Assembly: GCF_947623445.1 (NCBI RefSeq) | Contig: NC_135248.1 | Location: 434,001 to 498,000, forward strand | Reading direction: 5' to 3' | Source: Clavelina lepadiformis | Taxonomy: Eukaryota > Chordata > Ascidiacea > Aplousobranchia > Clavelinidae | DNA length: 64,000 nucleotides | Shown: piece after piece, positions 6,147 to 41,066 of the stretch | How positions within the stretch are numbered: position 1 is the first letter of the stretch | Layout: each line of letters begins with the position of its first letter | Notes under the pieces: model-generated | Databases searched by the model: none | Seen by the model: only the letters and a program-made list of their open reading frames with translations | Told to the model about the DNA's origin: nothing | Position numbers and translations under genes: made by a program

Positions 6147-6440
6147 AAAGGCGGCTTATGGCCGTGGTTTAAGTTGAGCGGCTTATGGCCGTGAATTGGG
6201 CTAGAATGGCTTACGGCCGGGATCGAACCTGGTACCTCTAGCACCGAGTGCAGTGTCGAAGAATACGAGCTACGAAGTGGCAACAGCAAGCAACAACAAT
6301 TTAACGGATTTAAACAAGCATCAGATGTAGATTCTTGAAAAAGGAAATGCAACAGATAGGGATTCGAACCCGAGACCTATCGCACCAAATGACTTCCCAT
6401 TGTGCTCGAGCTATGCAACTGTACTTGCCAATAAAGTTAA
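6147..6440 (-). repeat. Dimeric tRNA-derived SINE, copy 1
   Basis: On the minus strand two tRNA-like heads lie in tandem. One has A box CATAGCTCGAGC and B box GGGTTCGAATCCC; the second has A box GTAGCTCGTATTC and B box CAGGTTCGATCCC. A tail of CGGCCATAAGCCG repeats follows. It sits exactly at the left edge of the array, and the same element marks the start of units 2 and 3. The dimeric reading is my inference. Confidence 0.6.
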
Positions 6441-7313
6441 AAAGGTATATAACCATCATTTCCATGTAGCAAAAAAGTGGTAAATCTCACTTGCTTTCAA
6501 AAAATCGAGCTCATTCTCGATATAATGCGCGCGACATATTCCAAAGTGGTTCAATATTTGCCCCAGAAGTCCGGTGGTTGCTACGAGTTGGAAAGTTTGA
6601 AAACTCTTGTTTGTGGAAATGAGAGAAAATAGTTGCATTCCACTTAAATTTTGATTTACAATGTTTGAAGTAAATATTCTGGAAGAATAAGTTTGCTTTT
6701 TAACTTTGAAGGCAGAGCTGCCTATGACGTCACCAAGAACTTCTTAATAATTTATTGCTTGTTTTAGAAGCTCCAATGTGAGGTGACAAATTGTAAATGC
6801 TTCAACATAATTTTGCTGAGATGATCTAAGAAAGAGAAATACGTCACACCTGGTCAACAGCACATCGCATTTAACCAGTTGGAGGGCGCTAAAGATCACG
6901 ATCCCAGCATTCAACGAGATTATTGCGCAACAATTGGATCCGGAACAAACCCTGACTTTCTTTTGTAAAATATCCATCCACACAGACATCACATTACACC
7001 TTGATTTCATCAAGAACAGTGCACCGTGGTACAATTACGTCATAATCGTGGATTGAACTTATAAACACGTGACAAAACATAAAAAAGTTCAAACTACGTC
7101 ACAGGATTCTCATTACATGAAATTTCGAGGCGGAATCTGCGTAAGATGACGTAATAAATGAAGCTTATAAAAACTTGGCGAAATAGACAAAGTTTTGTAA
7201 AACGAGACAAAAACTAAAACAAAGGTAGGAATAAAAAATCTAAAAACAGCTGAAAATATACAAATTATTGATATGATTCGACGAAGCAGCAGATTCAATG
7301 GATCAGTAAAAGC

Positions 7314-10300
7314 TTAGATTGGGGTCTCGTAGTAAAACTTCTTCACACTCAACCCCGCCACGCTCAAATCTTCGGATGACGCAAGGATCTGTGACGTATT
7401 AGGCGGCAGGCTTCTTCTATCCGAGTTTCTTCCCTTGGCGAATAGGTGAGTCATGTTGCTAGGTTCCGTGTCCGACTTGTGCATTCGGCGAACGGCGTCA
7501 GCTGAGTTGCTGTACGGGGGATTCACCTGAAGGCTGCTTTTCCTGGGGCCGCCAGGAATTGCCCAGGGCAGGCTCGGCAGACGATTGCTGTTGTCGATTG
7601 CTGATCGCCTTTCCATTACGTCATCGGGTTTCTGGGGGTTGACGTGCTCGGGTTTATGGGGATCTCCCGTGTTGTAGCCAGGGGAAAAGGAGAGACGTTG
7701 GTCCCCACTGCAAAAAGCAGCAAGCGGTAAATGAATTATATACACTGTGTCCGCCAGATGGCGGGTTGAGCAGACAACAAACAAATAATTTAATGACATC
7801 AAGAAACTCGACTAAGACAGCCACATGACGTCAACAATCGGTTTCTGGGTGTGTTGCAATCCCTTATGACGTAACAATAACTCACCTGGCGTTAGGTGAT
7901 GCGTAACTTTGCCTGGATGCCAAATATGACGGAGGCTCCACCTGATTATGATATCATAATTAATAATTATTAACGAGAAGCAAAAATTAATAACGCCACC
8001 ATCTATCATTGTGACGTCAAAGAAGAAATAAAGAGAAGGAAAGCATGAAGCCTATTTTAAAGGGAAATCCCCATATGGGTACCTGTGGGGGGCGGGAAGC
8101 TTGGTTGGGTTTGGGGTGGAAGAACAACTCGGCGGTGAGTCGAGTCGATACGGAGGGGATTTGCTTCTTCTTGTTCCACGTTGGGTCGTCGGTGGCAGAT
8201 TCAAAGTCATAAGCGACCAGTCTGTTCACCCTGGTCATCATCTAAACAGGCTACAAGTCAGCCGCCGCGTGTGACGTCACAATGAAACTCAGCGAGCAAC
8301 AATTACCTGCATAATCTCCATGTGAGCTCCGTACTTGCGCAGGGTGGCGCACAAATTCTGGATGAAGATTGAACCGTTGTTTTCATTCCGCCACGAATAA
8401 TATTCTGCAACAAAGCATGCACTCTGGCGTCAAAATGCTGATTATGACGTAATAACTATACCACGAACGAAAACGAATGCTCTTAACCACCTGACACTGT
8501 CGAGTTCGCGATGAGGAAATCGGCCTCAACGGGGACCGACACGTAATCAGGTGCGCCATCTACCACGTCACCCACAGGGGCACCTGCAGGTCCGTCCACT
8601 CTGTCAAAGCTGTTCGATGCCAGTCGTACCTGGACACCATCGTCACGTTTGTAGCCACGGCACGCCTGGAAGTGTCGATGATTAAAATTATATACAGAGA
8701 CTTGTGTCACGCATCACTGCACACCAACCTGGATGAAGAATAACTTCGGCTTCCTTGCAAGACTCGGGCAGTTGTCGGGACTGAACGGCCGCGTGAATTC
8801 CTTCAACTCCATCTTCGCATCTCGCGCGTACAGGACGTCATTATCGCCACCATGTGTCAGGATCGCACAGCCAAAGCAGTCATAGTTTGAGTGGTCGGCT
8901 TCGGCCACTAAGAACATGGACATATTATAACAAACACAAATGCATTACAACAGCGAATGAGGAAGTTGCAAGCTTACCTCGCTTCAGCCAGCGCTGGATG
9001 AGTTGTTTGCTCGCGTCGTGGATGATGCGGACGTATTCGAAGCCGAGATTTTTCACCGTGTCTTCGATGTTCATCGCATCCATGTCCGTGCCGAGTCGAA
9101 CTTTCAACCTGAGCTTCGGGTCAAAGTTCTGAAAAACCGAATCAGATGAAGTTGCTTTCTATAAATCCACATACAGGACCACAACACAGTGAATTTATGC
9201 ATGTGGACAAGCTAGAACATGTATTGGCACGAAAGGGTGGACCGTTCTAAGCTCCACTAGATAAGATGATGTGGAACCTTTTGGTTGAAGATGATGAAGC
9301 ATCCTCTCTCCTGGTGCCTCATGTTGTACTGATACTCCGAATCGATCCTCTCAAGCAATCTAATCTCCGGAGGATGTGCTCCTTGCATGGATACGTCTCC
9401 CTCGCTTCCAACATCTGCATCCACCACGTCGTTCCTTGATCCTTCCTCTGGACCACACCTGAAACATAGATATCTCATAACATACCACCACAAGACAGCG
9501 AGTTGATATCTTTTAGCTGACACTCACATATAAAAGTGCTTGATTGATTCTGTGATGTCATCTTCTTTGTCATCCCGAGTATTTTGAAAAACATCATCAA
9601 TTGTGACCACATAATCTCTCTTCTCAGCTTTGCTGCAAATGAATTTTTTTAAATTAATTCCTGAAACATAATCAGCACATTGATGAAAATCACAAGAGCA
9701 GTTTTGTTTATGTAACAATACAGTCGTGTTTACTCACCCAGGGTCAAAGTTCATGACGACGTTCCCCGCAGGTTCTATAGACGGAGTATCCTGGAACAGG
9801 ACGGCTCCTGCGTGTACAAATGTGAAAATAGATTATTATTTATCAACCAAAACAAATTCTCGTGCAACTACCACGTAGAGTTTCAAGAAGCAATTGAGCA
9901 ATATAAGAGCAAACAAAAGCAGAAATTGATGGATTGTGAAAAGCAAATAGAGTGTTAGATCGGTATAAGTTTCGTCATCCCCCTATTGAACGCAGCAAAT
10001 GGGTCTTGCACCATCGGTAAATCGTTTGACTAATGAGTAAACATGAGAAGGTAAACACTGGCTCGCTTATTGTGAGGACACGACCCAGCAGAGAAAAACA
10101 AACACATCACAATTAAATGATTATGACAGAACATTACACCACAATTAAAAGCAAAAGATTGCAAAGCAACACAGAGCACTGCAGCAATTAATTAGTGGTT
10201 GCGCAATCGATTAATTTTACTGAAATAACATTAATGAAATAAAAGCAGCAAATTATTAAAGGAAGTTTCACGTTGCTGACAATCTATTTTTAGCATGGAC

Positions 10301-11053
10301 GACACATATTGATACCGGTACTCAGCTTTACACATGGGCAATGTCACAAATGTGCAGTGAAGTTACAAATGGACGCAATAATCAGACCACGCTGGTTAGA
10401 GAGAGTGGCTACAACTTAAACAACATAGTCTGAAGAAAGCTGAGCCCACTTGACCAAACAGCAAGTTATAAGAGCTCATTTGCCCGGCAACATTTCCATA
10501 CAGGCAAGCAGCTAAATTACAATATGCCACCAACTTAAGCAATAAACATCATATTGCAAGCTTACTGAATGAAAAATCTTAACTTTAAACGTACCACAAG
10601 CATCATTACAACTATCTGCGCTGTTGCTAACATCGCTGAAACAAATCATTTACAAGTAAATGAAAACATGTTGTGCCTTATCACGAAAAACACAGAATTG
10701 GTTTAGAAATCAAAGCGAAAATTAAACTTGTACCTGCTGGTAGTGAAGATGTGGAAGAAACTCGATCTTCCTGATGTCGTTCGTCGATTCCGTCAAATGT
10801 GGGGTCTGCCATCGCACTTTCGTAATCTTTGTCCTGCAAAAATTCACAACTTCATAAAACACAAATCCTTCATTGTATGAAAAGAATTAAACGAACATTT
10901 CAAAGACGAAAACAGTCAGAAGTATTGTGCAATTTAAGTTTGTGACTGTAAGCTACACATTTTGAAATGTGGTAAAATATTTTCGTAAAATATCTGCACA
11001 AGCACGTCATAGCTTACCTGGTTTGTACGATCAAATTCTGGGAAAATATCCAT
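7314..11053 (-). CDS. Caspase-3/7-like effector caspase, copy 1, with C-terminal tail
   Basis: A cysteine protease cutting after aspartate, of the apoptotic effector type. Exons in gene order: 11018-11053, 10734-10833, 9738-9807, 9528-9632, 9278-9458, 8978-9128, 8729-8907, 8491-8665, 8307-8404, 8083-8241, 7886-7941, 7314-7707. All junctions are GT-AG and in phase, giving 567 residues. Seen: catalytic His233 in LTHGG and Cys276 in QACRG, 43 residues apart; a p10 start like caspase-3 (EYYSWRN, NGSIFIQ); and the end of the core at LTAELFF. The roughly 145-residue N-terminus shows no CARD or DED. DVVD occurs at 114-117 and again in the p20/p10 linker at 307-310, both plausible cleavage sites. Residues 419-567 form an extra, probably disordered tail ending YYETPI. 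Reading through the intron at 8082 would instead add a short hydrophobic end. The exon model is inferred; the family call is firm. Confidence 0.9.
10595..10635 (-). other. Possible cryptic or frame-breaking cassette exon in caspase copy 1
   Basis: On the minus strand a 41-nt block is bounded by a good acceptor (TTGTTTCAG) and a GT donor. It lies in the long second intron. Including it would shift the frame and hit a stop in the next exon; skipping it gives a perfectly phased protein. The block is kept in all three units (about 23205-23245 and 35821-35861). It may be a poison exon or just a chance pair of splice sites. Confidence 0.3.
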
Positions 11054-11095
11054 GACTTTATCGATGTCTTCTCAGAGGTTAATGTTTTTGCACAA

Positions 11096-11140
11096 GAATA
11101 GCAGCAGCAGCAGCAGTAGTAGTAATAAATAAATAAATAT
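11096..11140 (-). repeat. CAG/TAG-type microsatellite just upstream of caspase copy 1
   Basis: AGC repeats followed by AGT and AATA repeats lie about 45 bp upstream of the caspase start codon. The number of AGC and AGT units rises from unit 1 to unit 3 (23707-23752, 36326-36371). A second CT-rich repeat lies at about 11307-11327, 23918-23937 and 36546-36576. Both would lie in the 5' UTR or promoter. Confidence 0.8.
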
Positions 11141-12596
11141 GTCACAAGTCACGTAAAATATTTCTCTAAAAACAAAGCAGAGTTGAAGAAACATCTTTTC
11201 TGAAGTAAATCTTTGACCGAGTTCCCTCTCAGCAACCTGCTTGTGCTGACATCAGGGAGCTCTCGCTTCAAAACTACCTGCTCAGTCCTTTATATAGAGT
11301 AGGCCCTCTCTCTCTCTCACTCTCTGAAATGTTTGTGTCTGTTTGAAGACAGATCAAATGTTGCAACACCTCACATTAAATAGTAAGTTATAATTGCAAC
11401 TGACACACCTATATCAAGGAAAAGTACAACTGCTGGCCGCTTACTACAGCTCCATCTAGATTGCTGAGTCAAATTTCAAAACAAAGAAAGCTTCCCACAA
11501 CACATCAAGACAAAGGTTCAAGCCATTAACAAAGTTGAAATGAGTCTCATTGTTCCAGCAATTCATGAAAATGTTGTTTTCAGTGGAAGTCCCACCATAA
11601 CAATGATGTAAACAAGAAACAAAAGTAAGGAGAAATGAGTTATTATTGTTACAACATGGTGCTAGAAATCCCCATTAGACCACCAGCAAGACATTTGCAT
11701 AAAAAATAGCATAATCTATATCAGCATTGACAAGTTTCTATTCCATAAGCCATGATACCAATCAATTGCAACAATACAAAAGTTTGTGAATGGTCATTTT
11801 ATAACAATCTACAGTGGACACAGGATAGTGTGGTATCATATTTCACTCATAATTGCAGACATCAATGGAAGTCAAGAGGTCACAGCTTGGAGTATTCCAC
11901 GGTTTCTGCCACAGGCCCACTTTGACTCACAACTTTATCAAATTTTACTTTACTTAAAATGCAAAAAATTGCTGAAATAATAATCAGTTGGACTCATCTA
12001 CATCATCACAATACTTTCCTCAGCCAGAGGATAAACATTACCATACCGTACCATCTTCCAGGCTAGGCCTGGGTTAAAATTAGGTTAAATCATAAAATAC
12101 CAACCAGGCTAAGCAAGCACGGATAGATCTGTGCTTGAGAGATATAATTAATTCCAGAATTATCCACCTGGCCTACACAGTCTGGCTATGTTGTATGGAA
12201 ATGATATACACATATTTATACATACTGCTACTTTGTAAGGCACTTGCTACAGGCCTACCTTAGTTACAACTTATACAAGGAAGGGTGTAGGCCTATAGCC
12301 GCAGATCAACTTCACAGATGCAGAAAAAGTTGAAGGATCACTTCCGGATACATTATGTAAGAACATCCGCTACATCACGAACGCGCCATTCAAAGATTCC
12401 GAGCCATTCAAATGCACAATAGGATTCCAACCTAGAGGCCTAATCATAATCAGCGATATTCATCGAACGTTCTGGTCGCAGCAAAGTTGATTCTTTGTTA
12501 ATAAGCAACTTTCGTCGCTCGTGATTCACACTTCACACAGGTTGTCTGGTTCAACGGAGCGTGTTACGTCATAACAACCCGGGCGACCAAAAATAG
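11141..12596. other. Caspase copy 1 upstream region, no gene recognised
   Basis: This presumed promoter and intergenic DNA is repeated in units 2 and 3 (about 23753-25209 and 36372-37855). Only simple repeats and short non-conserved frames are seen. Confidence 0.4.
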
Positions 12597-13098
12597 TTAC
12601 AGAACCAAAACTTGATAATTTGCGCAATAAGCGCCATATTGAAAGCAACGTGTGTTTGCTGAAGTAGGTATATTTGGAAATATCACGTGAAGTCGCGGCC
12701 ACACGCTATTTTGATGAGTCTTTATCTTTTTAACATGATACAACACAAAACTTCTTCGCAGGGAATAACAACAAAACACAAACATCTGCCCGATACAGCT
12801 TTGTCTTTCGCCTATGACATAAGAACGCTTGATGACGTCGCTATGCGATCCTAGAATGATAGTCGGTGTTGATTGCGCAGGACACTGTAGGCCTATATTT
12901 GAGTGACAATTCTTATTTCCTAATTTCACCACCGTTTGGTTTTTGTTTAAAGGGTCGATGTCGCAATAATTGTTTTTATCATGCTTGATTGGTCCTGCGT
13001 CACAATAAATTGGCGGGAAATCGCTCAGACATTTACCAGCTGGGAGATTTTCGAGCACAATTAATTATCTTGCTGAGTTCAAATCAAATGGGAAAAGT

Positions 13099-13263
13099 TT
13101 ATTTTGGTAAAATGTTGCTAACGCGCATCAGCTGACTCGTTGCCGCAAACCCAGGTGAAGACGACACCGATTGCGCAATGCTGATTTGAAAATTCCCTGA
13201 GGCTAACCAAAACATGGCCAAAGTCCACAGGAAAAGAGGAACATAAACTGTAATGTGCTTCAT
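13099..13263 (-). CDS. Possible small secreted peptide, copy 1
   Basis: A 54-residue open frame starts MKHITVYVPLFLWTLAMFW, which looks like a signal peptide, followed by a polar stretch ending SNILPK. It repeats intact in unit 2 (25712-25876) but is interrupted in unit 3. No family is recognised. Units 1 and 2 are nearly identical here at the DNA level, so conservation between them is weak evidence for coding. It may be chance. Confidence 0.2.
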   Translation of the reverse strand: MKHITVYVPLFLWTLAMFWLASGNFQISIAQSVSSSPGFAATSQLMRVSNILPK

Positions 13264-15158
13264 GTCTTGACAAATTATTGTGTTACAAAGAAACGAAAGA
13301 AACGAACACGATTGTCTAACTAAAACATTTCCAGAACTTTTTAAGCAAATAATCACTTATTATGACGCAACATTTTCAGCAAAATCAACCCACACGACAA
13401 CATCACAAAATAAAAACATGTCAAAATACTACAAACATACTGATGGTAATTTTGCTTCGACCTAATTGTAGCGCAGGGGCTGTGGTCTCGCATTGCATTG
13501 TGGGAGAGGTGACTTACGTTTGACGAGCATAAACCTACTTGAAATTAAATTCCCTTTGTCGCTCTTTCAAACCCAGACATACTCTAACTACCCTAGTGTG
13601 ACGTCACTATTGTCGATTAATGGTGCAACATCTAGTTGATGACGTCATTCAAAGCTATTATCTTGTTGAGACTTGTCTAAAAAACGGAGACGAAATAAAC
13701 AAAAAGATTTTTGAAATCAGAAGACTGGTGACGAATTGCAGCGGAAACCCGCTTGAGTGATGTCATGAAGATGAATGAAACACATCATGAACCGCAGAAG
13801 CGCGGCAAAAATACGGCGCCAGAGAACGAACGAACGAATATGAACTCGTATTTATTACGCAGATGTTTCAGATTTCTCTGTAATCATTCCCGGCAGAAAC
13901 GACTATAAAATAGTAGAACTGCAATTTCAAACTCTGACCATGACAAACGTATGATTATTAAGAACAAAAGCGAGATATAAGGACAATGTCGAATGCATCA
14001 ACTCTAGCTCAAAAGCTTCAACGACAACAGATAACTTTTCCAGGATCTTTAGCTCTGCTGCTGGGTTTTGCAACAAATAGAAGCCTCAATCGCTGCAGAT
14101 TTATCTATACCTGATCTAAAACTTTTTCAACAAAATTTTGCGTTAAATTAAATGTTGCCACAGATGTGTCACAAAAACCTGGCTTAAAATGGCACAAATA
14201 GCGACGCTGTAATGTTGAAATCGAATGTGTAAAGGCTGGTGTTTATTGAAGTACGGAGCTGAACTTGTCGGATTTTGCGACGTACAAATCTTTATTAAAA
14301 AAATTTTTGTACAATTACTGACGAAGCTTTTTTGTGTCAGCAGAAATTTCTTCTAAAACGTACAACAGGGTGGCGCAATTGCCAACTGAAATCAACACAG
14401 GAAATCTGACTTTCCTTCACTTACATTGCCAAGTAAACGCACGAGGTGGTGTTCTCGTATGGCGTCACAATCTCAAGTGTACGTGTCAGAATGACCATTA
14501 AATTTCCAAGTTCCAACCTACTTGTGGTGATAAATTGTACGTCACAAGGATTTTTCAAAATCTTTTCATTACTTTGTTATTCAATTAACTGTGGTTCTTA
14601 TCTAAGCTCGATATTGTGTCAGATGCTGTCATCTTTGCTTTGTAAAAATGCGACAAAATACTCGCGGATCTGAAAACAACTTCCGCTCGCACAGACACCA
14701 ACAGCGCGTCGGTCGCGTCCGCGAATGCTTTGCTGGCACCAAAAAGGATCGACCGAGACATTCATTTATTCATTTTATTTTTCATCTTCAATGTAGAGAA
14801 CGAAAACATTATGCTGACGCAAGTGGTCCCAAACATGTTGGTAGTTATCGACACTTTCCACAAATTGGACGGGCAAATGTGATAAGGCCTCGAGGGCAAA
14901 AACGTGCATTACGGACCAATAAGAGAATGTAAAAAAGTTATTAGCGTCAGCACGGCCACCAAACCCAAATTCGAAGTGTCGAAGTTTTTATTAATTTAGA
15001 AGCTCTGTAAGAAAATTATTTGTAAATAATAAATAAAAATTTGTGTCAACGCAAAAGACTGAATACCAAGTTACTACAGAAGCTTCAGTCCCAAGTTTCG
15101 TTCAAAAATCAATGTAAATTTTTGTCTTTCCTACTGTAAATGAACCTATATATAGACT
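13264..15158. other. Unit 1 distal region, no gene recognised
   Basis: Non-coding by inspection. Several open frames of 60-95 codons occur, but they keep their DNA sequence only between units 1 and 2 and do not resemble known proteins. TGACGTCA palindromes occur at 13599 and 13640. Equivalent DNA occurs at about 25877-27771 and 38534-40420. Confidence 0.4.
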
Positions 15159-15166
15159 GCTATAAG

Positions 15167-15512
15167 CAGGGTTGCCATCAGTCTCAACTCAAAAATAAGG
15201 ACGACTAGAAAATGAACAAGGAATACCACCTTAAACAGTGTACAACAAGAGAAAGCAACCAATGTTCCTAAAAAAAAAAAAAACAAGACACTATCTGCAT
15301 GTTCATAATTTTGGTATCTCTTTGGTACAAAATGGTATCGTAAGGTGACAAAATGCCCAAAATAAGGACAAAAGTGCCCACCTCCGCCTTAAAAATAAGG
15401 ACGCAAGTGAAAATAAGGACATTTCTTAGAAATAACGACAAACATATTTTCTAAGACACGGACCTTTAAAATAAGGACAAATCTTAGAAATATGGACGGT
15501 ATGGCAACCCTG
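15167..15512. mobile_element. hAT-type MITE, 346 bp, copy in unit 1
   Basis: Terminal inverted repeats CAGGGTTGCCAT and ATGGCAACCCTG flank an internally repetitive body with several AATAAGGAC words. An 8-bp target duplication, GCTATAAG, lies at 15159-15166 and 15513-15520. The empty site in unit 3 (near 40417-40426) has a single GCTATAAA. CAG-type ends plus an 8-bp duplication are the mark of the hAT superfamily. No transposase is encoded. Confidence 0.9.
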
Positions 15513-15848
15513 GCTATAAGGCTGTTATTTTAGAAAAGAAGTACATAGACATCCTATATAGTATTACTGACTGTGCTTGAATCAAATGCCACAAGTTGTC
15601 GCACTTCACTATTCTTTATTCCGTAACAATAAACAGCGCCACCGAATGGAGCATTATTAACATGAGTACTGTTGACAACATGACGTCATATCTAACAAAC
15701 ATTTAAAAAGCAAGGTTTAGAAAACGACGTCATTACAAGTTAGTTATGACGTCACGCAATTGTTTATTCAGAGAGCACGGAATGCATTGGAAGTGAAGAT
15801 TGAGAGGAAAAGCAGCAAACGAGGTATCGCGGTTGATATAGTTGATAT

Positions 15849-16142
15849 AAAGGTGGCTTATGGCCGTGGATTAAGTTGAAGCGGCTTATGGCCGTGAATT
15901 GGGCTAGAATGGCTTACGGCCGGGATCGAACCTGGAACCTCTAGCACCGAGTGCAGTGTCGAAGAACGCGAGCTACGAAGTGGCAACAGCAAACAACAAC
16001 AATTTAACGCATTTAAACAAGCATTAGATGTAGATTCTTGAAAAATGAAATGCAACAGATAGGGATTCGAACCCGAGACCTATCGCACCAAATGAATTGC
16101 CATTATGCTCGAGCTAATCAACTGTATTTGCCAATAAAGTTA
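15849..16142 (-). repeat. Dimeric tRNA-derived SINE, copy 2
   Basis: It has the same two tRNA-like heads as the element at 6147, with fewer 3' tail repeats. It marks the junction between units 1 and 2. Shortly after it, at about 16230-16275, units 2 and 3 carry a short insert absent from unit 1. Confidence 0.6.
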
Positions 16143-17055
16143 AAAAGATATATAACCATCATGTCCATGTAGCAAAAAAGTGGTAAATCTCACTTGCTTT
16201 CAAAAAATCGAGCTCATTCTCGATATAAAGCGCGCAAGACCAAACCCCGGGGCTGGCGCTGCCCAGAAGACTCAACTGTTTCGGCGCGACATATTTCAAA
16301 GTGGTTCAATATTTGCCCCGGAAGTTGCTACGAGTTGGAAAGTTTGAAAACTCTTGTTTGTGGAAATGAGAGAAAATAGTTGCATTCCACTTAAATTTTG
16401 ATTTACAATGTTTGAAGTAAATATTCTGGAAGAATAAATTTGCTTTTTAACTTTAAAGGCAGAGCTGCCTATAACGTCACGAAGAACTTCTTAATAATTT
16501 ATTGCTTGTTTAGAAGCTCCAATGTGAGGTGACAAATTGTAAATGCTTCAACATAATTTTGCTGAGATGATCTAAGAAAGAGAAATACGTCACACCTGGT
16601 CAACAGCACATCGTATTTAACCAGTTGGAGGGCGCTAAAGATCCCGATCCCAGCATTCAACGAGATTATTGCGCAACAATTGGATCCGGAACAAACCCTG
16701 ACTTTCTTTTGTAAAATATCCACACAGACATCACATTACACCTTGATTTCATCAAGAACAGTGCACCGTGGTACAATTACGTCATAATCGTGGATTGAAC
16801 TTATAAACACGTGACAAAACATAAAAAAGTTCAAACTAACTCACAGGATTCTCATTACATGAAATTTCGCGGCGGAATCTGCGTAAGATGACGTAATAAA
16901 TGAAGCTTATAAAAACTTGGCGAAATAGACAAAGTTTTGTAAAACGAGACAAAAACTAATACAAAGGTAGGAATAAAAAATCTAAAAACAGCTGAAAATA
17001 TACAAATTATTGATATGATTCGACGAAGCAGCAGATTCAATGGATCAGTAAAAGC

Positions 17056-28125: not shown

Positions 28126-28461
28126 GCTATAAGGCTGTTATTTTAGAAAAGAAGTACATAGACATCCTATATAGTATTACTGACTGTGCTTGAATCAAAT
28201 GCCACAAGTTGTCGCACTTCACTATTCTTTATTCCGTAACAATAAACAGCGCCACCGAATGGAGCATTATTAACATGAGTACTGTTGACAACATGACGTC
28301 ATATCTAACAAACATTTAAAAAGCAAGGTTTAGAAAACGACGTCATTACAAGTTAGTTATGACGTCACGCAATTGTTTATTCAGAGAGCACGGAATGCAT
28401 TGGAAGTGAAGATTGAGAGGAAAAGCAGCAAACGAGGTATCGCGGTTGATATAGTTGATAT

Positions 28462-28755
28462 AAAGGTGGCTTATGGCCGTGGATTAAGTTGAAGCGGCTT
28501 ATGGCCGTGAATTGGGCTAGAATGGCTTACGGCCGGGATCGAACCTGGAACCTCTAGCACCGAGTGCAGTGTCGAAGAACGCGAGCTACGAAGTGGCAAC
28601 AGCAAACAACAACAATTTAACGCATTTAAACAAGCATTAGATGTAGATTCTTGAAAAATGAAATGCAACAGATAGGGATTCGAACCCGAGACCTATCGCA
28701 CCAAATGAATTGCCATTATGCTCGAGCTAATCAACTGTATTTGCCAATAAAGTTA
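28462..28755 (-). repeat. Dimeric tRNA-derived SINE, copy 3
   Basis: It is nearly identical to the element at 15849 and marks the junction between units 2 and 3. Confidence 0.6.
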
Positions 28756-29668
28756 AAAAGATATATAACCATCATGTCCATGTAGCAAAAAAGTGGTAAA
28801 TCTCACTTGCTTTCAAAAAATCGAGCTCATTCTCGATATAAAGCGCGCAAGACCAAACCCCGGGGCTGGCGCTGCCCAGAAGACTCAACTGTTTCGGCGC
28901 GACATATTTCAAAGTGGTTCAATATTTGCCCCGGAAGTTGCTACGAGTTGGAAAGTTTGAAAACTCTTGTTTGTGGAAATGAGAGAAAATAGTTGCATTC
29001 CACTTAAATTTTGATTTACAATGTTTGAAGTAAATATTCTGGAAGAATAAATTTGCTTTTTAACTTTAAAGGCAGAGCTGCCTATAACGTCACGAAGAAC
29101 TTCTTAATAATTTATTGCTTGTTTAGAAGCTCCAATGTGAGGTGACAAATTGTAAATGCTTCAACATAATTTTGCTGAGATGATCTAAGAAAGAGAAATA
29201 CGTCACACCTGGTCAACAGCACATCGTATTTAACCAGTTGGAGGGCGCTAAAGATCCCGATCCCAGCATTCAACGAGATTATTGCGCAACAATTGGATCC
29301 GAAACAAACCCTGACTTTCTTTTGTAAAATATCCACACAGACATCACATTACACCTTGATTTCATCAAGAACAGTGCACCGTGGTACAATTACGTCATAA
29401 TCGTGGATTGAACTTATAAACACGTGACAAAACATAAAAAAGTTCAAACTACGTCACAGGATTCTCATTACATGAAATTTCGCGGCGGAATCTGCGTAAG
29501 ATGACGTAATAAATGAAGCTTATAAAAACTTGGCGAAATAGACAAAGTTTTGTAAAACGAGACAAAAACTAATACAAAGGTAGGAATAAAAAATCTAAAA
29601 ACAGCTGAAAATATACAAATTATTGATATGATTCGACGAAGCAGCAGATTCAATGGATCAGTAAAAGC

Positions 29669-32600
29669 TTAGATTGGGGTCTCGTAGTAAAACTTCTTCA
29701 CGCTCAACCCCGCCACGCTCAAATCTTCGGAAGACGCAAGGATCTGTGACGTATTAGGCGGCAGGCTTCTTCTATCCGAGTTTCTTCCCTTGGCGAATAG
29801 GTGAGTCATGTTGCTAGGTTCCGTGTCCGACTTGTGCATTCGGCGAACGGCGTCAGCTGAGTTGCTGTACGGGGGATTCACCTGAAGGCTGCTTTTCCTG
29901 GGGCCGCCAGGAATTGCCCAGGGCTGGCTCGATAGACGATTGCTGTTGTCGATTGCTGATCGCTTTCCCATTACGTCATCGGGTTTCTGGGGGTTGACGT
30001 GCTCGGGTTGATGGGGATCTCCCGTGTTGTAGCCAGGGGAAAAGGAGAGACGTTGGTCCCCACTGCAAAAAGCAGCAAGCGGTAAATGAATTATATAAAC
30101 TGTGTCCGCCAGATGGCGGGTTGAGCAGACAACAAACAAATAATTTAATGACATCAAGAAACTCGACTAAGACAGGAGAGTGTGCGCCACATGACGTCAA
30201 CAATCGGTTTCTGGGCGTATTACAATCCCTTATGACGTAACAATAACTCACCCGGCGTTAGGTGATGCGTAACTTTGCCTGGATGCCAAATATGACGGAG
30301 ACTCCACCTGATTATGACATCATAATTAATTACACTGGTCAACACGATTTTTGTTGCAGATTGTGTTTGGGTCTTTTTTACCTAATTTGGGGGCGCTGAA
30401 TCCGAATCTGGCGTTATTTTGTTTCTATCACATCACGTTTTTGAGATAATATATAATTTATATATGTTCATTATGAAATAATACTGCAAATCAGAGACCG
30501 CCTTGAAATGTAGAAGTTGTTTTAATCAGAACTGCTGGAACGTTTAATCATGCAAAACACGAACACAAAGCCTCGTGTTCAGTTAAAAAACATCACTAGA
30601 AATTGACCGTTGAACATTCAATGTAATGCCACAATCTTTAAGAACTCGAAAATTTTCGTTTTAATGGCTTTCGTTTGTGGGTAGTAGTGTAAATTTATCT
30701 CTTCAAATTCCAGCAGTAATCTGCCATCATGTGGCAATCCCATCGGCCCTGGTAGCGCTCTTCCATAACTCTAATATATTGGTGGAAGCGCTCACCTTGT
30801 TCTTCACTGACGTCCCCAAGGTTTTCAGGAAAGTAATCTGAATGATTTTTCAGAAAATGTAGCTTTATGCTCATATTGCATTTCATCTCTTGCATGCTGG
30901 ACAACATTTCTTTTACGAGGTCTCGATAGTTCTCTGCCTTTCTGTTGCCAAAGAAGTTACTAACAACTAAAGAAAAAGCATTCCATGCCCTTGCTTCTAA
31001 TGTGTTCATTGATGCTGCAAAATTTGCATCTCTGAGCAACTGCCTTATTTGTGGGCCGTTAAAAACTCTTCACTAAGACTTCACTAAAACTATTTTTTTT
31101 CTTCACTAAGACTTGGGAAGGCTTGGCATATGTACTTAAAGCAATCTCCACTGTGACCAAGGGCTTTAACATACTGTTTCATTGCGCCAAGTTTGATGTG
31201 AAGTGGCAGCAGGATGATCTTCTTGGTATCCACTAACGGGTTATGAATGATATTTTTTTCTCCAGGTGTTAAACTGCTCCTTTCTGGCTACTTATCTTTT
31301 ATCCAATGCTCATCTTTGGCTCTGCTATCCCAGTAGCAGAGAAAACAAGGGTATTTGGTGTAACCACCTTGCTGTCCTAACAGAAGGTTCATTATTTTTA
31401 TGTCTACACACAATCCCCAGCCATGATCACTGTACTTCAGTGTTTCCAGCACATTCTTAATGTTTTCATACGTCTCTTTGAGTGTCACAGAATGTCCTAC
31501 TGGAATCGATGCATATTTATTTCCATTGTGAAGTAACACGCATTTCAGGCTTCGTTTTGAGCTGTCAATAAACAGTCTCCACTCATCTGGTTGATATTTG
31601 GCTATTCCTAATTGCAAAAGAAGACCTTCAATATCATGGCAATAAACCAAAGATCTTTTAGAAGAAAAATAGTTCAGAAATAGCTTTTCTCGATTCCGAT
31701 AAAACGTGACAGATCATTCAAGCTGGAGAAGGTTTTTTTCCTGGAGCCGTGAAGCTAGCAGTTCTGAGGCCTGTTTGGAAAGATTTAAATCACGGATTAA
31801 ATCGTTCAGTTCCGACTGATTGAACAATAAGGGTTGCTCAGAAAAGGAGCTCAAGGGTTGAAAATCTAAATCTGAAACTTCTTTATCAGTTTGTGAAGAA
31901 TCAGAGGATAATCTAAGCTCTTCTTCACTACTTTCGGGCAGATGAGTAAAGGTAGGCACAGGTATTTCGTCACTGTGTGCAATAGGACGCAGAGCAGAGG
32001 CAAGATTTGGATATTGCAGCTTGTGCTTGTTCCTCTTGTTGTAACCTTTCACACTGACACGACAAAAGTAGCAATCATTGAGATGATTTTTTTGTTCTGG
32101 CCAGATCATTGGTATACCAAACTTCAGATGTTTGTCCTTGCCCTGAGACCAAGATCTCAAACTCTCCACGCAACTTCTGCATACTTTATGAGGGACCCAA
32201 CTTTTATCTTGGTCCCCTAACTTCACCTTAAAGTAAGCGAAATAAGACCTTTTCACAAAATTGGTAATTTCATGTCGTTGGGAAGAGACAGTGAAGCAAC
32301 CACAAATATAGCAAAAAATATTGGGGTCATTGGCGCATGTACGCTTTTTGACAGCTGACATAGTATTTAATACAATCCAAAATTACAACTCAATAACACA
32401 AACTGACTCCATAAAGTCAATGAAAGTATACTGCGAAAATTACACCCTGTCTTTCGTTTGGTTTCAAGTTAGTTTCAAGTTTCAAGTTCAGAGTAAGCAG
32501 AATTAGCACGATAAGCACATTAAGCATGATAAGCAGATTAAGCATGATAAGCACAATAAGCAGTTTGGTTCTTTGGATAATCAGACATCCTGTGTCTTTT

Positions 32601-35600
32601 AATGTTTCAAAACAAGCTTATATGACCACACATTTGGGTTATTTGCCAAAGCGCATAATTTTATTTTACCTTGTACAAACAATATTATGTTTATCGTTTA
32701 CAATGTTTATGTTTTACTAAAGAGCAAGGTGCTGTCATAAAAAGCATTTATAAAGCCGATTAAGTCTGCAGGGCAGATGTATAAAGATAAAGATGGTAAC
32801 TAAGTAATGAACTACCAAAGAAAAATGAATGCGTCCACATATATTTTCGAAATTCGAAAAGAGGTCCGTGATTGAAAAAGATTGAGAACCATTGGATTAA
32901 AGTTAACCGAAATCTCTGTCATTCAGTACTACAACAAAAACTTTCAGCCGAGGTTTCATCATAGGTGATTTCAATAACAATATTTGATCTGTTGCTGTTA
33001 TACGCTCACCGTACCGTCGCTAATGAAAGTCAAAATTTGATCATTTTATGAAATTGGGGAAAATGCGCAGCGAAAAAACCTGACGTGATAGAGCAATTCT
33101 GAGCTCAGAATTGGATTCAGCAACCAAAACTTATCCTAAATCAATCATCAAAGTTCATGCAACTAAAAATTGTTTTGTTTTTGTAGACCAGTGTTATTAA
33201 CGAGAAGCAAAAGTTAATAACGCCTCGATCTATCATTGTGACGTCAAACAAGAAATAAAGAGAAGGAAAGCATGAAGCCTATTTTAAAGGGAAATCCCCA
33301 TATGGGTACCTGTGGGGGGCGGGAAGCTTGGTTGGGTTTGGGGTGGAAGAACAACTCGGCGGTGAGTCGAGTTGGTATGGAGGGGATTGACTTCTTCTTG
33401 TTCCACGTTGGGTCGTCGGTGGCAGATTCAAAGTCATAAGCGACCAGTCTGTTCACCCTGGTCATCATCTAAACAGGCTACAAGTCAGCCGCCGCGTGTG
33501 ACGTCACAATGAAACTCAGCGAGCAACAATTACCTGCATGATCTCCATGTGAGCTCCGTACTTGCGCAGGGTGGCGCACAAATTCTGGATGAAGATTGAA
33601 CCGTTGTTTTCATTCCGCCACGAATAATATTCTGCAACAAAGCATGCACTCTGGCGTCAAAATGCTGATTATGACGTAATTACTATACCACGAACGAAAA
33701 CGAATGCTCTTAACCACCTGACACTGTCGAGTTCGCGATGAGGAAATCGGCCTCAACGGGGACCGACACGTAATCAGGTGCGCCATCTACCACGTCACCC
33801 ACAGGGGCACCTGCAGGCCCGTCCACTCTGTCAAAGCTGTTCGATGCCAGTCGTACCTGGACACCATCGTCACGTTTGTAGCCACGGCACGCCTGGAAGT
33901 GTCGGTGATTACAATTATATACAGAGACTCGTGTCACGCATCACTGCACACCAACCTGGATGAAGAATAACTTCGGCTTCCTTGCAAGACTCGGGCAGTT
34001 GTCGGGACTGAAGGGCCGCGTGAATTCCTTCAACTCCATCTTCGCATCTCGCGCGTACAGGACGTCATTATCGCCACCATGTGTCAGGATCGCACAGCCA
34101 AAGCAGTCGTAGTTTGAGTGGTCGGCTTCGGCCACTAAGAACATGGACATATTATAACAAACACGAATGCATTACAACAGCGAATGAGGAAGTTGCAAGC
34201 TTACCTCGCTTCAGCCAGCGCTGGATGAGTTGTTTGCCCGCGTCGTGAATGATGCGGACGTATTCGAAGCCGAGATTTTTCACCGTGTCTTCGATGTTCA
34301 TCGCATCCATGTCCGTGCCGAGTCGAACTTTCAACCTGAGCTTCGGGTCAAAGTTCTGAAAAACCGAATCAGATGAAGTTGCTTTCTATAAATCCACATA
34401 CAGGACCACAACACAGTGAATTTATGCATGTGGACAAGCTAGAACATGTGTTGGCACGAAAGGCGGACCAGGCTGAACTCTACTAGATAAGATGATGTGG
34501 AACCTTTTGGTTGAAGATGATGAAGCATCCTCTCTCCTGGTGCCTCATGTTGTACTGATACTCCGAATCGATCCTCTCAAGCAATCTAATCTCTGGAGGA
34601 TGTGCTCCTTGCATGGATACGTCTCCATCGCTTCCAACATCTGCATCCACCACGTCGTTCCTTGATCCTTCCTCTGGACCACACCTGAAACATAGATATC
34701 TCATAACATACCACCACAAGACAGCGAGTTGATATCTTTTAGCTGACACTCACATATAAAAGTGCTTGATTGACTCTGTGATGTCATCTTCTTTGTCATC
34801 CCGAGTATTTTGAAAAACATCATCAATTGTGACCTCATAATCTCTCTTCTCAGCTTTGCTGCAAATTAATTTTTGTAAATTAATTCCTGAAACATAGTCG
34901 GCACATTGATGAAAACCACAAGAGCAGTTTTGTTTATGTAACAATACAGTCGTGTTTACTCACCCAGGGTCAAAGTTCATGACGACGTTCCCCGCAGGTT
35001 CTATAGACGGAGTATCCTGGAACAGGACAGCTCCTGCGTGTACAAATGTGAAAATAGATTATTATTTATCAACCAAAACAAATTCTCGTGCAACTACCAC
35101 GTAGAGTTTCAAGAAGCAATTGAGCAATATAAGATCAAACAAAAGCAGAAATTGATGGATTGTGAAAAGCAAATAGAGTGTTAGATCGGTATAAGTTTCG
35201 TCATCCCCCTATTGAACGCAGCAAATGGGTCTTGCACCATCGGTAAATCGTTTGACTAATGAGTAAACATGAGAAGGTAAACACTGGCTCGCTTATTGTG
35301 AGGACACGACCCAGCAGAGAAAAACAAACACATCACAATTAAATGATTATGACAGAACATTACACCACAATTAAAAGCAAAAGATTGCAAAGCAACACAG
35401 AGCACTGCAGCAATTAATTAGTGGTTGCGCAATCGATTAATTTTACTGAAATAACATTAATGAAATAAAAGCAGCAAATTATTAAAGGAAGTTTCACGTT
35501 GCTGACAATCTATTTTTAGCATGGACGACACATATTGATACTGGGACTCAGCTTTACACATGGGCAATGTCACAAATGTGCAGTGAAGTTACAAATGGAC

Positions 35601-36279
35601 GCAATAATCAGACCACGCTGGTTAGAGAGAGTGGCTACAACTTAAACAACATAGTCTGAAGAAAGCTGAGCCCACTTGACCAAACAGCAAGTTATAAGAG
35701 CTCATTTGCCCGGCAACATTTCCATACAGGCAAGCAGCTAAATTACAATATGCCACCAACTTAAGCAATAAACATCATATTGCAAGCTTACTGAATGAAA
35801 AATCTTAACTTTAAACGTACCACAAGCATCATTACAACTATCTGCGCTGTTGCTAACATCACTGAAACAAATCATTTACAAGTAAATGAAAACATGTTGT
35901 GCCTTATCACAAAAAACACAGAATTGGTTTAGAAATCAAAGCGAAAATTGAACTTGTACCTGCTGGTAGTGAAGACGTGGAAGAAACTCGATCTTCCTGA
36001 TGTCGTTCGTCGATTCCGTCAAATGTGGGGTCTGCCATCGCACTTTCATAATCTTTGTCCTGCAAAAATTCAAAACTTCATAAAACACAAATCCTTCATT
36101 GTATGAAAAGAATTAAACGAACATTTCAAAGACGAAAACAGTCAGAAGTGTTGTGCAATTTAAGTTTGTGACTGTAAGCTACACATTTTGAAATGTGGTA
36201 AAATATTTTCGTAAAATATCTGCACAAGCACCTCATAGCTTACCTGGTTTGTACGATCAAATTCTGGGAAAATATCCAT
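29669..36279 (-). CDS. Caspase-3/7-like effector caspase, copy 3; transposon in tail intron
   Basis: The third paralogue has exons 36244-36279, 35960-36059, 34964-35033, 34754-34858, 34504-34684, 34205-34355, 33956-34134, 33718-33892, 33534-33631, 33310-33468, 30252-30307, 29669-30062. All exons stay open and in phase. Its p20, p10 and tail exons are almost identical to copy 2. The N-terminal exons and the upstream region, from about 34.75 kb on, differ more from both other copies, for example DYEVTIDD in place of DYVVTIDD. It carries the same transposon in the tail intron as copy 2. Promoter divergence could give this copy different expression; that is inference. Confidence 0.88.
30333..33193 (-). 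mobile_element. DNA transposon, 2,861 bp, inserted in caspase copy 3 intron
   Basis: It has the same element, ends and TTA duplication as at 17720, shifted by 12,613 bp. Only a few substitutions separate the two copies, so they arose by the tandem duplication and not by two insertions. Confidence 0.9.
30695..32361 (-). pseudogene. Broken transposase-like gene in the unit 3 transposon
   Basis: It shares both lesions of the unit 2 copy (the TGA after the first piece and the frameshift before the last). It has one more: a Trp codon after WIKDK has become TAG near 31288, shortening the middle piece to 120 codons. The shared lesions predate the duplication; the extra one came after it. Confidence 0.75.
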
Positions 36280-36325
36280 GACTTTATCGTTGTCTTCTCA
36301 GATGTTAATATTTTTGCACAAGAAT

Positions 36326-36359
<34 letters not shown>

Positions 36360-38359
36360 ATAAATAAATAAATATGTCACAGGTCACGTAAAATATTTCT
36401 CTAAAAACAAAGCAGAGTTGAAGAAACATCTGAAGTAAATCTTTGACCGAGTTCCCTCTCAGCAACCTGCTTGTGCTGACATCAGGTGACATCAGGGAGC
36501 TCTCACTTCAAAACTACCTGCTCAGTCCTTTATATAGAGTAGGCCCTCTCTCTCTCACTCTCTCTCTCACTCTCTGAAATGTTTGTGTCTGTTTGAAGAC
36601 AGATCAAATGTTGCAACACCTCACATTAAATAGTAAATTATAATTGCAACTGACACACCTATATCAAGGAAAAGTACAACTACTGGCCGCTTACTACAGC
36701 TTGATCTAGATTGCTGAGTCAAATTTCAAAACAAAGAAAGCTTCCCACAACACATGAAGACAAAGGGTCAAGCCATTAACAAAGTTGATATAAGTCTCAT
36801 TGTTCGAGCAATTCATGAAAATGTTGTTTTCAGTGGAAGTCCCACCATAACAATGACGTAAACAAGAAACAAAAGTAAGGAGAAAATGTTTGTTATTATT
36901 GTTACAACAAAGTGCTAGAAATCCCCACCAGACCACCAGCACGACATTTGCATAAAAAATAGCATAATCTATATCAGCATAGACAAGTTTCTATTCCATA
37001 AGCCATGATACCAATCAATTGCAACAATACAAAAGTTTGTGAATGGTCATTTTATAACAATCTACAGTGGACACAGGATAGTGTGGTATCATATTTCACT
37101 CATAATTGCAGACATCAATGGAAGTCAAAAGGTCACAGCTTGGAGTATTCCACGGTTTCTACCACAGGCTCACTTTGACTCACAACTTTATTAAATTTTA
37201 CTTTACTTAAAATGCAAAAAATTGCTGAAATAATAATCAGTTACACTCATCTACATCATCACAATACTTTCCTCAGCCAGAGGATAAACATTAACATACC
37301 GTACCATCTTCCAGGCTAGGCCTGGGTTAAAATTAGGTTAAATCATAAAATACCAACCAGGCTAAGCAAGCATGGATAGATCTGTGCTTGAGAGATATAA
37401 TAATAATTAATTCCAGAATTATCGACCTGGCCTACACAGTCTGGCTATGTTGTATGGAAATGATATACAAATATTTATACATACTGCTACTTTGTAAGGC
37501 ACTTGCTACAGGCCTACCTTACTTACAACTTATACAAGGAAGGGTGTAGGCCTATAGCCGCAGATCAACTCCACAGATGCAGAAAAAGTTGAAGGATCAC
37601 TTCCGGATACATTATATAAGAACATCCGCTACATCACGAACGCGCCATTCAAAGATTCCGAGCCATTCAAATGCACGATATGATTCTAGCCTATAGACCT
37701 AATCACAATCAGCGATATTCATCGAACGTTGTGGTCGCAGCAAAGTTGATTCTTTGTTAATAAGCAACTTTCGTCGCTCGTGATTCACACTTCACACAGG
37801 TTGTCTGGTTCAACGGAGCGTGTTACGTCATAACAACCCGGGCGACCAAAAATAGTTACAGAACCAAAACTTGATAATTTGCGCAATAAGCGCCTTGTTG
37901 AAAGCAACGTGTGTTTGCTGAAGTAGGTATATTTGGAAATATCACGTGAAGTCGCGGCCACACGCTATTTTGATGAGTCTTTATCTTTTTAACATTATAC
38001 AACACAAAACTTCTTCGCAGGGAATAATAAAGCAACAAAACACAGACATCTGCCTGATATAGCTTTGTCTTTCGCGTATGACATCAGAATGTTTCATGAC
38101 GTCGCAATGTGATCCTAAAATGATAATCGGTGTTGATTGCGTACGACACAGTAGGCCTATATTTGAGTAACAATTCTTATTTCCTAATTTCACCACCGTC
38201 TAGTTTTTTGTTTGAAGGGTCGATGTCGCAATAATTGTTTTTATCATGCTTGATTGGTTCTACGTCACAATAATTTGGCGGGAAATCGCTCCGACATTTA
38301 CCAGCTGGGAGATTTTCGAGCACAGTTATCTTGCTGAGTTCAAATCAAATGGGAAAAGT

Positions 38360-38533
38360 TTATTTTGGTAAAATGTTGCCAACGCGCATCAGCTGACTCG
38401 TTGCCGCGGACCTTGGTGAAGACGACACCGGAAAATCGACACAGATTGCGCAATGCTGATTTGAAAATTTCCTGAGGCTAATCAGAACATGGCCAAAGTC
38501 CACAGGAAAAGAGGAACATAAACTGTAATGTGC
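38360..38533 (-). pseudogene. Broken counterpart of the small secreted-peptide frame in unit 3
   Basis: The region matching 13099-13263 keeps the MKHITVYVPLFLWTL start, but the Trp codon in the hydrophobic core has become TGA (TGG to TGA on the minus strand). An indel follows in the mature part. Either the peptide was lost here or it was never real. Confidence 0.25.
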
Positions 38534-41066
38534 TTCATGTCTTTACAGAATATTGTGTTAAAGAAAAGAACACGATTGTCTAAAACATTTTCAGAACTTT
38601 TTAAGCAAATAATCACTTATTATGACGTAACAATTTCAGCAAAAACAACTCTCACGACAACATCACAAAATAAAAAACATGTCAAAATACTACAAACATA
38701 CTGATGATAATTTTGCTTCGACCTAATTGTAGCGCAGGGGCTGTGGTCTCGCATTGCATTGTGGGAGAGGTGACTTACGTTTGACGAGCATAAATCTACT
38801 TGAAATTAAATTCCCTTTGTCGCTCTTTCAAACCCAGACATACTCTAACTACCATACTGTGACGTCACTATTGTCGATTAATGGCGCAACATCTAGTTGA
38901 TGACGTCATTCAAAGCTATTATCTTGTTGAGACTTGTCTACAAAACGGAGACGAAATAAACAAAAAGATTTTTGAAATCAGAAGACTGGTGACGAATTGC
39001 AGCGGAAACCCTCTTTTGGTGATGTCATGAAGATGAATGAAACGCAGAAGCAGGACGACAATATACGACGCCAGAGAACTAACGAATAAATATAAACTGG
39101 TATTTATTACGCAGACGTTTCTGCGATCATTCCCAGCAGAAACGACTATAAAATAGTAGAGCTGCAATTTCAAACTCTGACCATAACAAACGTATGATTA
39201 ATAAGAACAAAAGCGCGATGTAAGGACAATGTCGAATGCATCAACTCTAGCTCAAACGCTTCAACGACAACACATAACTTTTCCAGGATCCTTAGCTCTG
39301 CTTTCGGGTTTTTCGACAAATAGAAGCCTCAATCGCTGCAGATTTATCTATACCTGATCTAAAACTTTTTCTACAAAATTTTGCGTTAAATTAAATGTTG
39401 CCACCGATCTGTCGCAAAAACATGGCTTAAAATGGCACAAATAGCGACGCTGTAATGTTGAAATAGAATGTGTAAAGGCTGGTGTTTATTGAAGTACGAG
39501 GCTGAACTTGTCGGTTTTTGCGACATAATTTGCGACATACAAATTTTTATTAAAAAAATTTTTGTACAATTACTGACGAAGCTTTTTTTGTGTCAGCGGA
39601 AAGTTCTTCTAAAACGTACAACAGGGTGGCGCAATTGCCAACTGAAATCAACACAGGAAATCTGATTTTCCTTCATTTACATTGCCAAGTAATCGCACGA
39701 GGTGGTGTTCTCGTATGGCGTCACCATCTCAATTGTACGTGTCAGAATAACCATTAAATTTCCAAGTTCCAACCTACTTGTGGTGATAAATTGTACGTCA
39801 CAAGGATTTTTCAAAATCTTTTCATTACTTTGTTATTCAATTAACTGTGGTTCTTATCTAAGCTCGATATTGTGTCAGACGCTGTCATCTTTGATTCGTA
39901 AAAATGCGACAAACTACTCGCGGATCTGAAAACAACTTCCGCTCGCACAGACACCAACAGCGCGTCTGTCGCGTCCGCGAATGCTTTGCTGGCACCAAAA
40001 AGGATCGACCGAGACATTCATTTATTCATTTTATTTTTCATCTTCAACGTGGGAGACGAAAAAATTTTGCTGACGCAGGTGGTCTCAAACATATTAGTTA
40101 GTTATCGACAACAATTTCCATAAATTGGACAGAAAAATCTGACAAGGACGTGAGGGCAAAAACGTGCATTACGGACCAATCATAGAATGTAAAAATGTTA
40201 TTAGCATCAACACGGCCATCAAACCCAAAGTCGAAGTGTCGAAGTTTTTATTAATTTAGAAACTCTGTAAGGAAATTATTTGTAAATAATAAATAAAAAT
40301 CTGTGTCAACGCAAAAGACTGAATGCCGAGTTACTACAGAAGCTTCAGTCCCAAGTTTCGTTCAGAAATCAATGTAAATTTTTGTCTTTCCTGCTGTAAA
40401 TGAACCTATATATAGACTGCTATAAAGCTGTTATTTCAGAAATAGAAGTACATAGACATCCTATATAACAGTATTACTGACTGTGCTTGAATCAAATGCC
40501 ACAAGTTGTCACATTTCACTATTCTTTATTCCGTAACAATGAAACAGCGCCACCGAATCGAGCATTGTTAACATGAGTACTGTTGACAACATGACGTCAT
40601 ATATAACAAACATTTAAAAAGCAAGGTTTAGAGAACGACGTCATTACAAGTTAGTTATGACGTCACGCAATTGTTCATCCAGAGAGCACGGAATGCATTG
40701 GAAGTGAAGATTGACAGGAAAGGCAGCAAACGAGGTATCGCGGGTTGATATAGAAATCGAGGTCGGGTTGTTATTTTGAGGGCCTGAGTTTAAGGCGCGG
40801 CATTCTCCCAGGTTAAGGCGTCGCACGGTACACAGCGACCTTGCCCGTATTAACATCTTTAAGTTGAAGACGAGACCACTTCGATCCTGGAAAATCATGA
40901 GCAGCCGCCTCAGTTGTAATTATATTTGCAAGGGCAGACAGGATCACATAGCGGAGTAAATGGTGTCGTAACCACCTGGGCTTGCTTCGGCTTGTAACAG
41001 TCTATAACCACCTTGGATTTTCGCTGAATTTACATTTCGTGCGACATAAGGGGATCGTTCCTTGTG

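What the first reader, a model, noticed from the sequence alone, without database searches (positions are those of the whole stretch)
6147..40753. Three-copy caspase array with mosaic ancestry
Three head-to-tail units each carry an apparently intact effector-type caspase gene. Unit 2 looks like unit 3 in its front half (including the transposon) and like unit 1 in its back half (including the MITE). The switch lies at about 22.1-22.9 kb, inside the caspase N-terminal exons and introns. The simplest history is an older two-copy array (front1-back1-front2-back3) in which back1-front2 was later duplicated by unequal exchange. The breakpoint inside the gene means copy 2 is a natural chimera of the other two. 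Caution: in a very heterozygous species, two haplotypes joined in assembly could imitate this.
Basis: partly seen in the sequence, partly recalled or inferred. Interest (0 to 1): 0.72.

Follow-up and report, generated by a model that had tools for sequence, protein, structure and literature searches.

The report
Chimeric middle gene in caspase triplet
A sea-squirt chromosome carries three side-by-side copies of a cell-death protease gene, and the middle copy is a front-back hybrid of its two neighbours, just as expected if two older copies mispaired and exchanged once; this is a clear but ordinary example of how gene arrays grow.

Summary
[quoted passage not shown] Three head-to-tail units (6.1-15.84, 15.84-28.45, 28.46-40.75 kb) each carry an open caspase-3/7-like gene on the minus strand. 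One switch explains 291 of 295 two-against-one sites. Left of it unit 2 is 0.14% from unit 3 and 2.4% from unit 1; right of it, 0.17% from unit 1 and 3.7% from unit 3. The switch lies in U2 22,015-22,160, between prodomain and catalytic exons. The blocks on either side are both 12,613 bp and 0.16% apart, evenly in both halves; both unit junctions share the same filler. This is the product of one unequal crossover between two older copies. The hybrid protein differs from copy 3 at 1 of 418 residues; more notable is copy 1's upstream region joined to a transposon-bearing 3' end. Another caspase-like array in this genome is mosaic too. Haplotype misjoining is unlikely, but reads were not available. 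New member of a known kind; modest interest.

The parts
6062..15841 (.). Unit 1 (parental copy; front1-back1), with the flanking 29-bp tandem array at its left edge
15842..28454 (.). Unit 2 (chimeric middle copy; front like unit 3, back like unit 1)
28455..40753 (.). Unit 3 (parental copy)
8083..11053 (-). Caspase gene copy 1, coding exons E1 (11053-11018), E2, E4-E11 (8241-8083); 418 aa to the end of E11
   Evidence: Peptidase_C14 E = 7.3e-55
20697..23663 (-). Caspase gene copy 2 (chimera): E1-E5 copy-1 type, E6-E11 copy-3 type
33310..36279 (-). Caspase gene copy 3
22015..22160 (.). Ancestry switch (inferred crossover interval): last 20 nt of E5, the intron, and first 57 nt of E6
9475..22087 (.). 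Duplicated block, copy 1 (back1-front2); edge set arbitrarily inside the switch interval
22088..34700 (.). Duplicated block, copy 2; 12,613 bp, 20 mismatches and two 3-bp indels from copy 1
15832..15849 (.). Unit 1/unit 2 junction with direct repeat GTTGATATA x2 (filler at the older duplication join)
28445..28462 (.). Unit 2/unit 3 junction, identical to the first
17720..20580 (.). DNA transposon 50 bp beyond the E11 read-through stop of copy 2; same insertion in unit 3 at 30333-33193; 9 near-full-length relatives elsewhere at 96-99% among the 40 of 611 candidates that were scored
15167..15512 (.). MITE (CAGGGTTGCCA ends, 8-bp target duplication GCTATAAG) in unit 1; same insertion in unit 2 at 27780-28125; empty site in unit 3 near 40,420
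9693..10634 (.). 942-bp low-divergence tract between the two parental copies (4 differences), next to the switch

Best explanation
Two-step array growth. First, a roughly 9.7-kb unit holding one effector-type caspase gene was tandemly duplicated by a non-homologous join, which left the filler repeat at the junction. The two copies then diverged by 2-4%; a hAT-like MITE entered the upstream side of copy 1 and a DNA transposon the 3' side of copy 2. Later, copy 2 of one chromatid or homologue paired with copy 1 of the other, and one crossover in a 146-bp stretch between exons E5 and E6 added a 12,613-bp block. The product is copy 1, a hybrid, and copy 2. The hybrid has copy 1's upstream region and prodomain joined to copy 2's catalytic domain and transposon-bearing 3' end. 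All three genes look able to make a caspase-3/7-like executioner protease. Shown: structure, switch, equal block divergence, open frames. Inferred: the crossover itself, expression, protease activity, any effect on cell death through dosage.
For: One switch fits 291 of 295 sites. The blocks are equal in length and 0.16% apart, with the same divergence in both halves. Junction filler is identical at both joins. Insertions are shared exactly as the model requires. In the parental pair U1/U3, pS = 0.039 and pN = 0.0072, from 18 changes. The protein keeps THGG, QACRG and YYSWR motifs and has two DVVD sites starting at residues 114 and 307. Best solved relatives are caspase-7, E 2.7e-66. The gene's DNA was found at three places in the genome, all in this array.
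Against: No reads, second haplotype or sister species were available. Of 14 polarisable block differences, 10 are on unit 2 against 4 on units 1 or 3 (two-sided binomial p about 0.18 by my arithmetic), which a simple clock does not predict but does not reject. The lowest-divergence tract (U1 9,693-10,634) lies just outside the switch interval rather than at it.
Confidence: 0.87

Rival explanations
1. Assembly artefact: two haplotypes, each with two copies, were joined end to end, copy 2 of one to copy 1 of the other.
For: It would give the same layout; block divergence would then be allelic divergence. The session's chromosome 1 is slightly shorter than published (28,783,666 against 28,789,166), so scaffold gaps may have been stripped and a hidden gap cannot be excluded.
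Against: A false join would have to occur across copies 2-4% apart whose longest exact shared stretch is 406 bp, while the assembly used 117x HiFi reads from DNA sheared to 12-20 kb and hifiasm. The window has no N. Block divergence of 0.16% is low for two haplotypes of a marine ascidian (recalled expectation of about 1% or more, not measured here). No unplaced contig was found to hold the gene, though that DNA search can miss sequence: two other queries did not even find themselves.
Confidence: 0.08
2. Unit 1 was duplicated whole, and the front of unit 2 was later overwritten by unit 3 through gene conversion.
For: A 942-bp low-divergence tract between units 1 and 3 suggests that copies in this array may convert.
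Against: It needs two events and a tract of about 6.2 kb that includes the 2.9-kb insertion and runs to the unit edge. It does not explain why both halves have the same divergence.
Confidence: 0.04
3. The 12.6-kb block was copied by a replication-based template switch between the two copies, not by crossover. (This shares the whole history of the best explanation except the last mechanism, so its odds overlap with it.)
For: It gives the same product at a homologous join.
Against: Nothing specific; the two mechanisms would leave the same sequence here.
Confidence: 0.1

Closest known systems
Maize p1/p2 and P1-wr cluster (PMC2686159 and PMC3014980, passages seen)
   Same: First duplication at a junction without detected homology; [quoted passage not shown] hybrid genes; proteins almost interchangeable, with regulatory differences.
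   Different: Plant gene, 11 copies plus hybrids, reshuffled by many events; here there are three copies and one clean switch.
Anti-Lepore haemoglobin arrangement (recalled; two searches found no paper in the library)
   Same: Three genes with a hybrid in the middle, made by unequal crossover between two older tandem copies.
   Different: Human globin variants; here it is in a reference assembly of a sea squirt and of unknown population frequency.
Vertebrate caspase-3/7 executioner caspases
   Same: Catalytic domain (residues 145-407) aligned over nearly all of solved caspase-7; His and Cys motifs; no CARD or DED found.
   Different: 113 residues before the first DVVD; three near-identical tandem copies.

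Membership tests
Caspase family (Peptidase_C14) | Caspase domain match over the curated cut-off | tested here: met
   186.6 bits against cut-off 21.4
Caspase family (Peptidase_C14) | Catalytic His and Cys in context (HG and QACxG; motifs recalled) | tested here: met
   THGG at 232, QACRG at 274; aligned to caspase-7
Effector (executioner) caspase | No CARD or DED prodomain | tested here: met
   Only Peptidase_C14 at E <= 0.1 for the 418-aa model; the 5' exons have no RNA support
Effector (executioner) caspase | Closest to caspase-3/7 among solved caspases | tested here: met
   The 60 rows shown, of 213, are named caspase-7, caspase-3, their proforms or apopain; no phylogenetic tree was made
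Effector (executioner) caspase | Cleaves after DxxD and is activated by interdomain cleavage (recalled) | not testable with these tools
   DVVD at 114 and 307 is suggestive only
Unequal-crossover product (anti-Lepore type) | Hybrid middle copy with parental types on both sides | tested here: met
Unequal-crossover product (anti-Lepore type) | Duplicated block bounded by homologous positions, equal divergence throughout | tested here: met
Unequal-crossover product (anti-Lepore type) | Real in the chromosome (read support, other individuals) | not tested

The most novel reading that the evidence does not exclude
The border between prodomain and catalytic exons is a recurrent recombination point in this species' caspase arrays, so promoters and prodomains are shuffled against catalytic domains as a routine source of regulatory variants and copy-number polymorphism in a colonial, budding chordate.
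Probability: 0.07. Interest if true: 0.5.

Novelty: new member of a known kind. Interest (0 to 1): 0.27.

Why it matters
It is a very readable case of array growth: one non-homologous duplication, two insertions as time stamps, then one homologous unequal crossover mapped to 146 bp. It gives C. lepadiformis extra copies of an executioner-type caspase, with one copy carrying another copy's upstream region, which could be tested for dosage or expression effects. It does not overturn anything known.

Tried and rejected
Protein novelty of the chimera: rejected, U2 differs from U3 at 1 of 418 residues. Estimating allelic divergence from unplaced contigs: of three 3-kb pieces fetched two were searched and gave no match at all, not even to themselves, so this told nothing; the third (L035) was not searched. 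A twelfth exon (E12, 7,707-7,654) used in the model was dropped: its stop is present in U1 but not in U2 or U3. A different frame of the same stretch is open in all three units, without a Pfam match (unit 1 only). A candidate exon E3 (10,590-10,650 region) was left out because it did not join in a convincing frame. The paralogues at C1 27.08 Mb, C9 0.595 Mb and C9 15.42 Mb gave DNA matches to unit 1 in exons only, so they could not root the noncoding differences. Literature listings: searches (12 of 315 papers listed; 3; 8 of 12; 8 of 26; 4), and with no paper; none of the titles or abstract starts seen names this array, and most of these papers were not opened. A search of plasmid records with one exon found nothing; it was of little use.

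Full report
Identity of the window. The window is G000:C9:434001-498000 of a 209.06-Mb assembly in 95 contigs. Contig lengths C1 28,783,666, C2 26,529,800, C3 25,734,561 and C9 15,725,681, and C7 20,448,514, match chromosomes 1, 2, 3, 9 and 7 of Clavelina lepadiformis kaClaLepa1.1 (28.79, 26.54, 25.74, 15.73, 20.45 Mb; 210.1 Mb in 102 scaffolds; PMC10884593, parts 1 and 2 of 3 read). That assembly was made from 117x PacBio HiFi of one specimen with hifiasm and purge_dups. The small shortfall in length may mean that gaps were removed, so a hidden gap in the window is not excluded, although the window has no N.

Observation. Self-comparison gives three direct units. Aligned together, units 2 and 3 are nearly identical from their left ends to about U2 22.0 kb, and units 1 and 2 from there to their right ends. 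Totals: front U1-U2 80/3,321 (2.41%), U1-U3 78/3,321 (2.35%), U2-U3 9/6,246 (0.14%); back U1-U2 11/6,364 (0.17%), U1-U3 218/5,968 (3.65%), U2-U3 222/5,968 (3.72%). Of 295 columns grouping unit 2 with one neighbour, 291 fit a single switch; the best of 10,000 permutations fits 223. The four exceptions (U2 16,689, 22,522, 22,932, 24,733) are scattered single sites, as later mutations would give. Ten more sites are private to unit 2.

The switch. The last 2=3 site is U2 22,014 and the first 1=2 site U2 22,161. In the gene model this interval holds the last 20 nt of E5, the short intron and the first 57 nt of E6. Since the gene is on the minus strand, copy 2 has its upstream region and E1-E5 (residues 1-103) of the copy 1 type, and E6-E11 of the copy 3 type.

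One event. The sequence from the switch in unit 1 to the switch in unit 2, and from there to the switch in unit 3, is 12,613 bp in both cases, with 20 mismatches and two 3-bp indels. Front and back halves show the same rate (Fisher p = 0.82). Both unit junctions read identically, including the doubled GTTGATATA, whereas the outer right edge (40,753) has it once and the outer left edge not at all. The simplest reading is that the junction was made once, by a non-homologous join, and then copied with the block. The MITE has an 8-bp target duplication in unit 1 and an empty site in unit 3; the transposon is absent at the matching place in unit 1. Both insertions therefore fall between the two duplications. 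This is what an unequal crossover between two older tandem copies leaves behind.

Points against or unexplained. Ten of 14 polarisable block differences lie on unit 2, and several are adjacent pairs or close clusters. A 942-bp tract (U1 9,693-10,634), mostly the long intron, has 4 differences between units 1 and 3, which none of 5,000 uniform shuffles matched; divergence is uneven along the units, so a uniform control is only a rough one. The tract may be an older conversion tract or a constrained intron, and it lies beside, not at, the switch. The longest exact U1-U3 match, 406 bp, lies inside it.

The gene. Ten coding exons give 418 residues up to the end of E11; the model has no RNA support and its 3' end is not settled. 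If E11 is read through, the stop is at 8,019 (U1), 20,633 (U2) and 33,246 (U3); in units 2 and 3 the transposon begins 50 bp beyond it, and the first AATAAA or ATTAAA then lies 581 nt after the stop, inside the transposon, against an ATTAAA at 225 nt in unit 1. Pfam gives Peptidase_C14 at 7.3e-55 and nothing else at E <= 0.1. Best solved relatives are caspase-7, then caspase-3. Between units 1 and 3, 11 synonymous and 7 non-synonymous changes give pS 0.039 and pN 0.0072, which fits purifying selection since the first duplication. U1 and U3 differ at 6 of 418 residues, U1 and U2 at 5, U2 and U3 at one (residue 77). The protein chimera is therefore nearly silent; the upstream region, 4.5% different between U1 and U3 (199/4,389), is the part that might matter.

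Elsewhere in the genome. The gene's DNA (2,780 bp) was found at three places, all in the array. Outside the array the best protein matches to the E8 region are at C1:27.084 Mb (69%), C9:15.426 Mb (59%) and C9:0.595 Mb (58%). As a comparison, a four-copy caspase-like array on C7 (period 4,515 bp) was profiled in the same way. Copies 1-3 agree in the front (0-4 differences per 300 columns up to column 1,800) while copy 4 is off by 4-15. In the back (columns 2,100-4,500) copies 1 and 2 agree (0-1 per 300 columns) while copy 3 is off by 2-22; copy 4 does not align well there, beyond the array's end. Front and back histories thus differ there too, so a mosaic array is not peculiar to this finding. 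The other caspase clusters seen were not profiled.

What is known. The maize p locus was explained by the same two stages: a first duplication without homology detected at the junction, then unequal crossover between two direct copies to make a third, with hybrid genes (PMC2686159, passages; PMC3014980, passages). The haemoglobin anti-Lepore arrangement is the human textbook parallel, recalled only (searches found nothing in the library). Tandem duplication of caspase genes is known in vertebrates (PMC2779465, passages).

Verdict. The finding is well supported, clean, and ordinary in kind. The chance that it is an assembly artefact is put at 0.08 and could be settled from public reads.

Noticed in passing
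G000:C7:2033027-2047243 (L045, L046): Four-copy array, period about 4,515 bp, of a caspase-like gene with a 331-aa open frame (Peptidase_C14 43.2 bits, profile 1-209 of 233) that by eye lacks the usual HG and QACxG catalytic motifs; its copies are also mosaic.
   Followed up: partly
window 7317-7706 (-), and matching stretches of units 2 and 3: A frame of 130 codons with an AG acceptor is open in all three units, with 5 non-synonymous and 3 synonymous U1-U3 codon differences and no Pfam match; it may be a last exon of the caspase or of another gene.
   Followed up: partly
window 9693-10634: The long intron is far less diverged between units 1 and 3 than its surroundings: conversion tract or constrained element.
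   Followed up: partly
window 17720-20580: Transposon with three separate open frames and only sub-threshold Pfam matches (zf-AD, PDDEXK_13). Of the 40 of 611 candidates scored, 9 outside the array are near full length and 23 look internally deleted (query 1267 to 2355 missing).
   Followed up: partly
window 54988-55572 (+); 58555-58977 (-); 60593-61048 (-): Neighbouring genes: phosphomevalonate kinase (2.2e-46), and exons matching AAA_11 (5e-20) and Dna2 (7.2e-09), probably of one Dna2-type helicase/nuclease gene.
   Followed up: no
window 41070-41531 (-): Next to the array's right edge, an open frame with a weak kinase match (PK_Tyr_Ser-Thr, E = 0.0059, below the curated cut-off).
   Followed up: no
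G000:C5:17.58-17.60 Mb and C5:20.93-21.38 Mb: Further clusters of caspase-domain matches; the genome had 53 Peptidase_C14 matches, some of them several exons of one gene.
   Followed up: no
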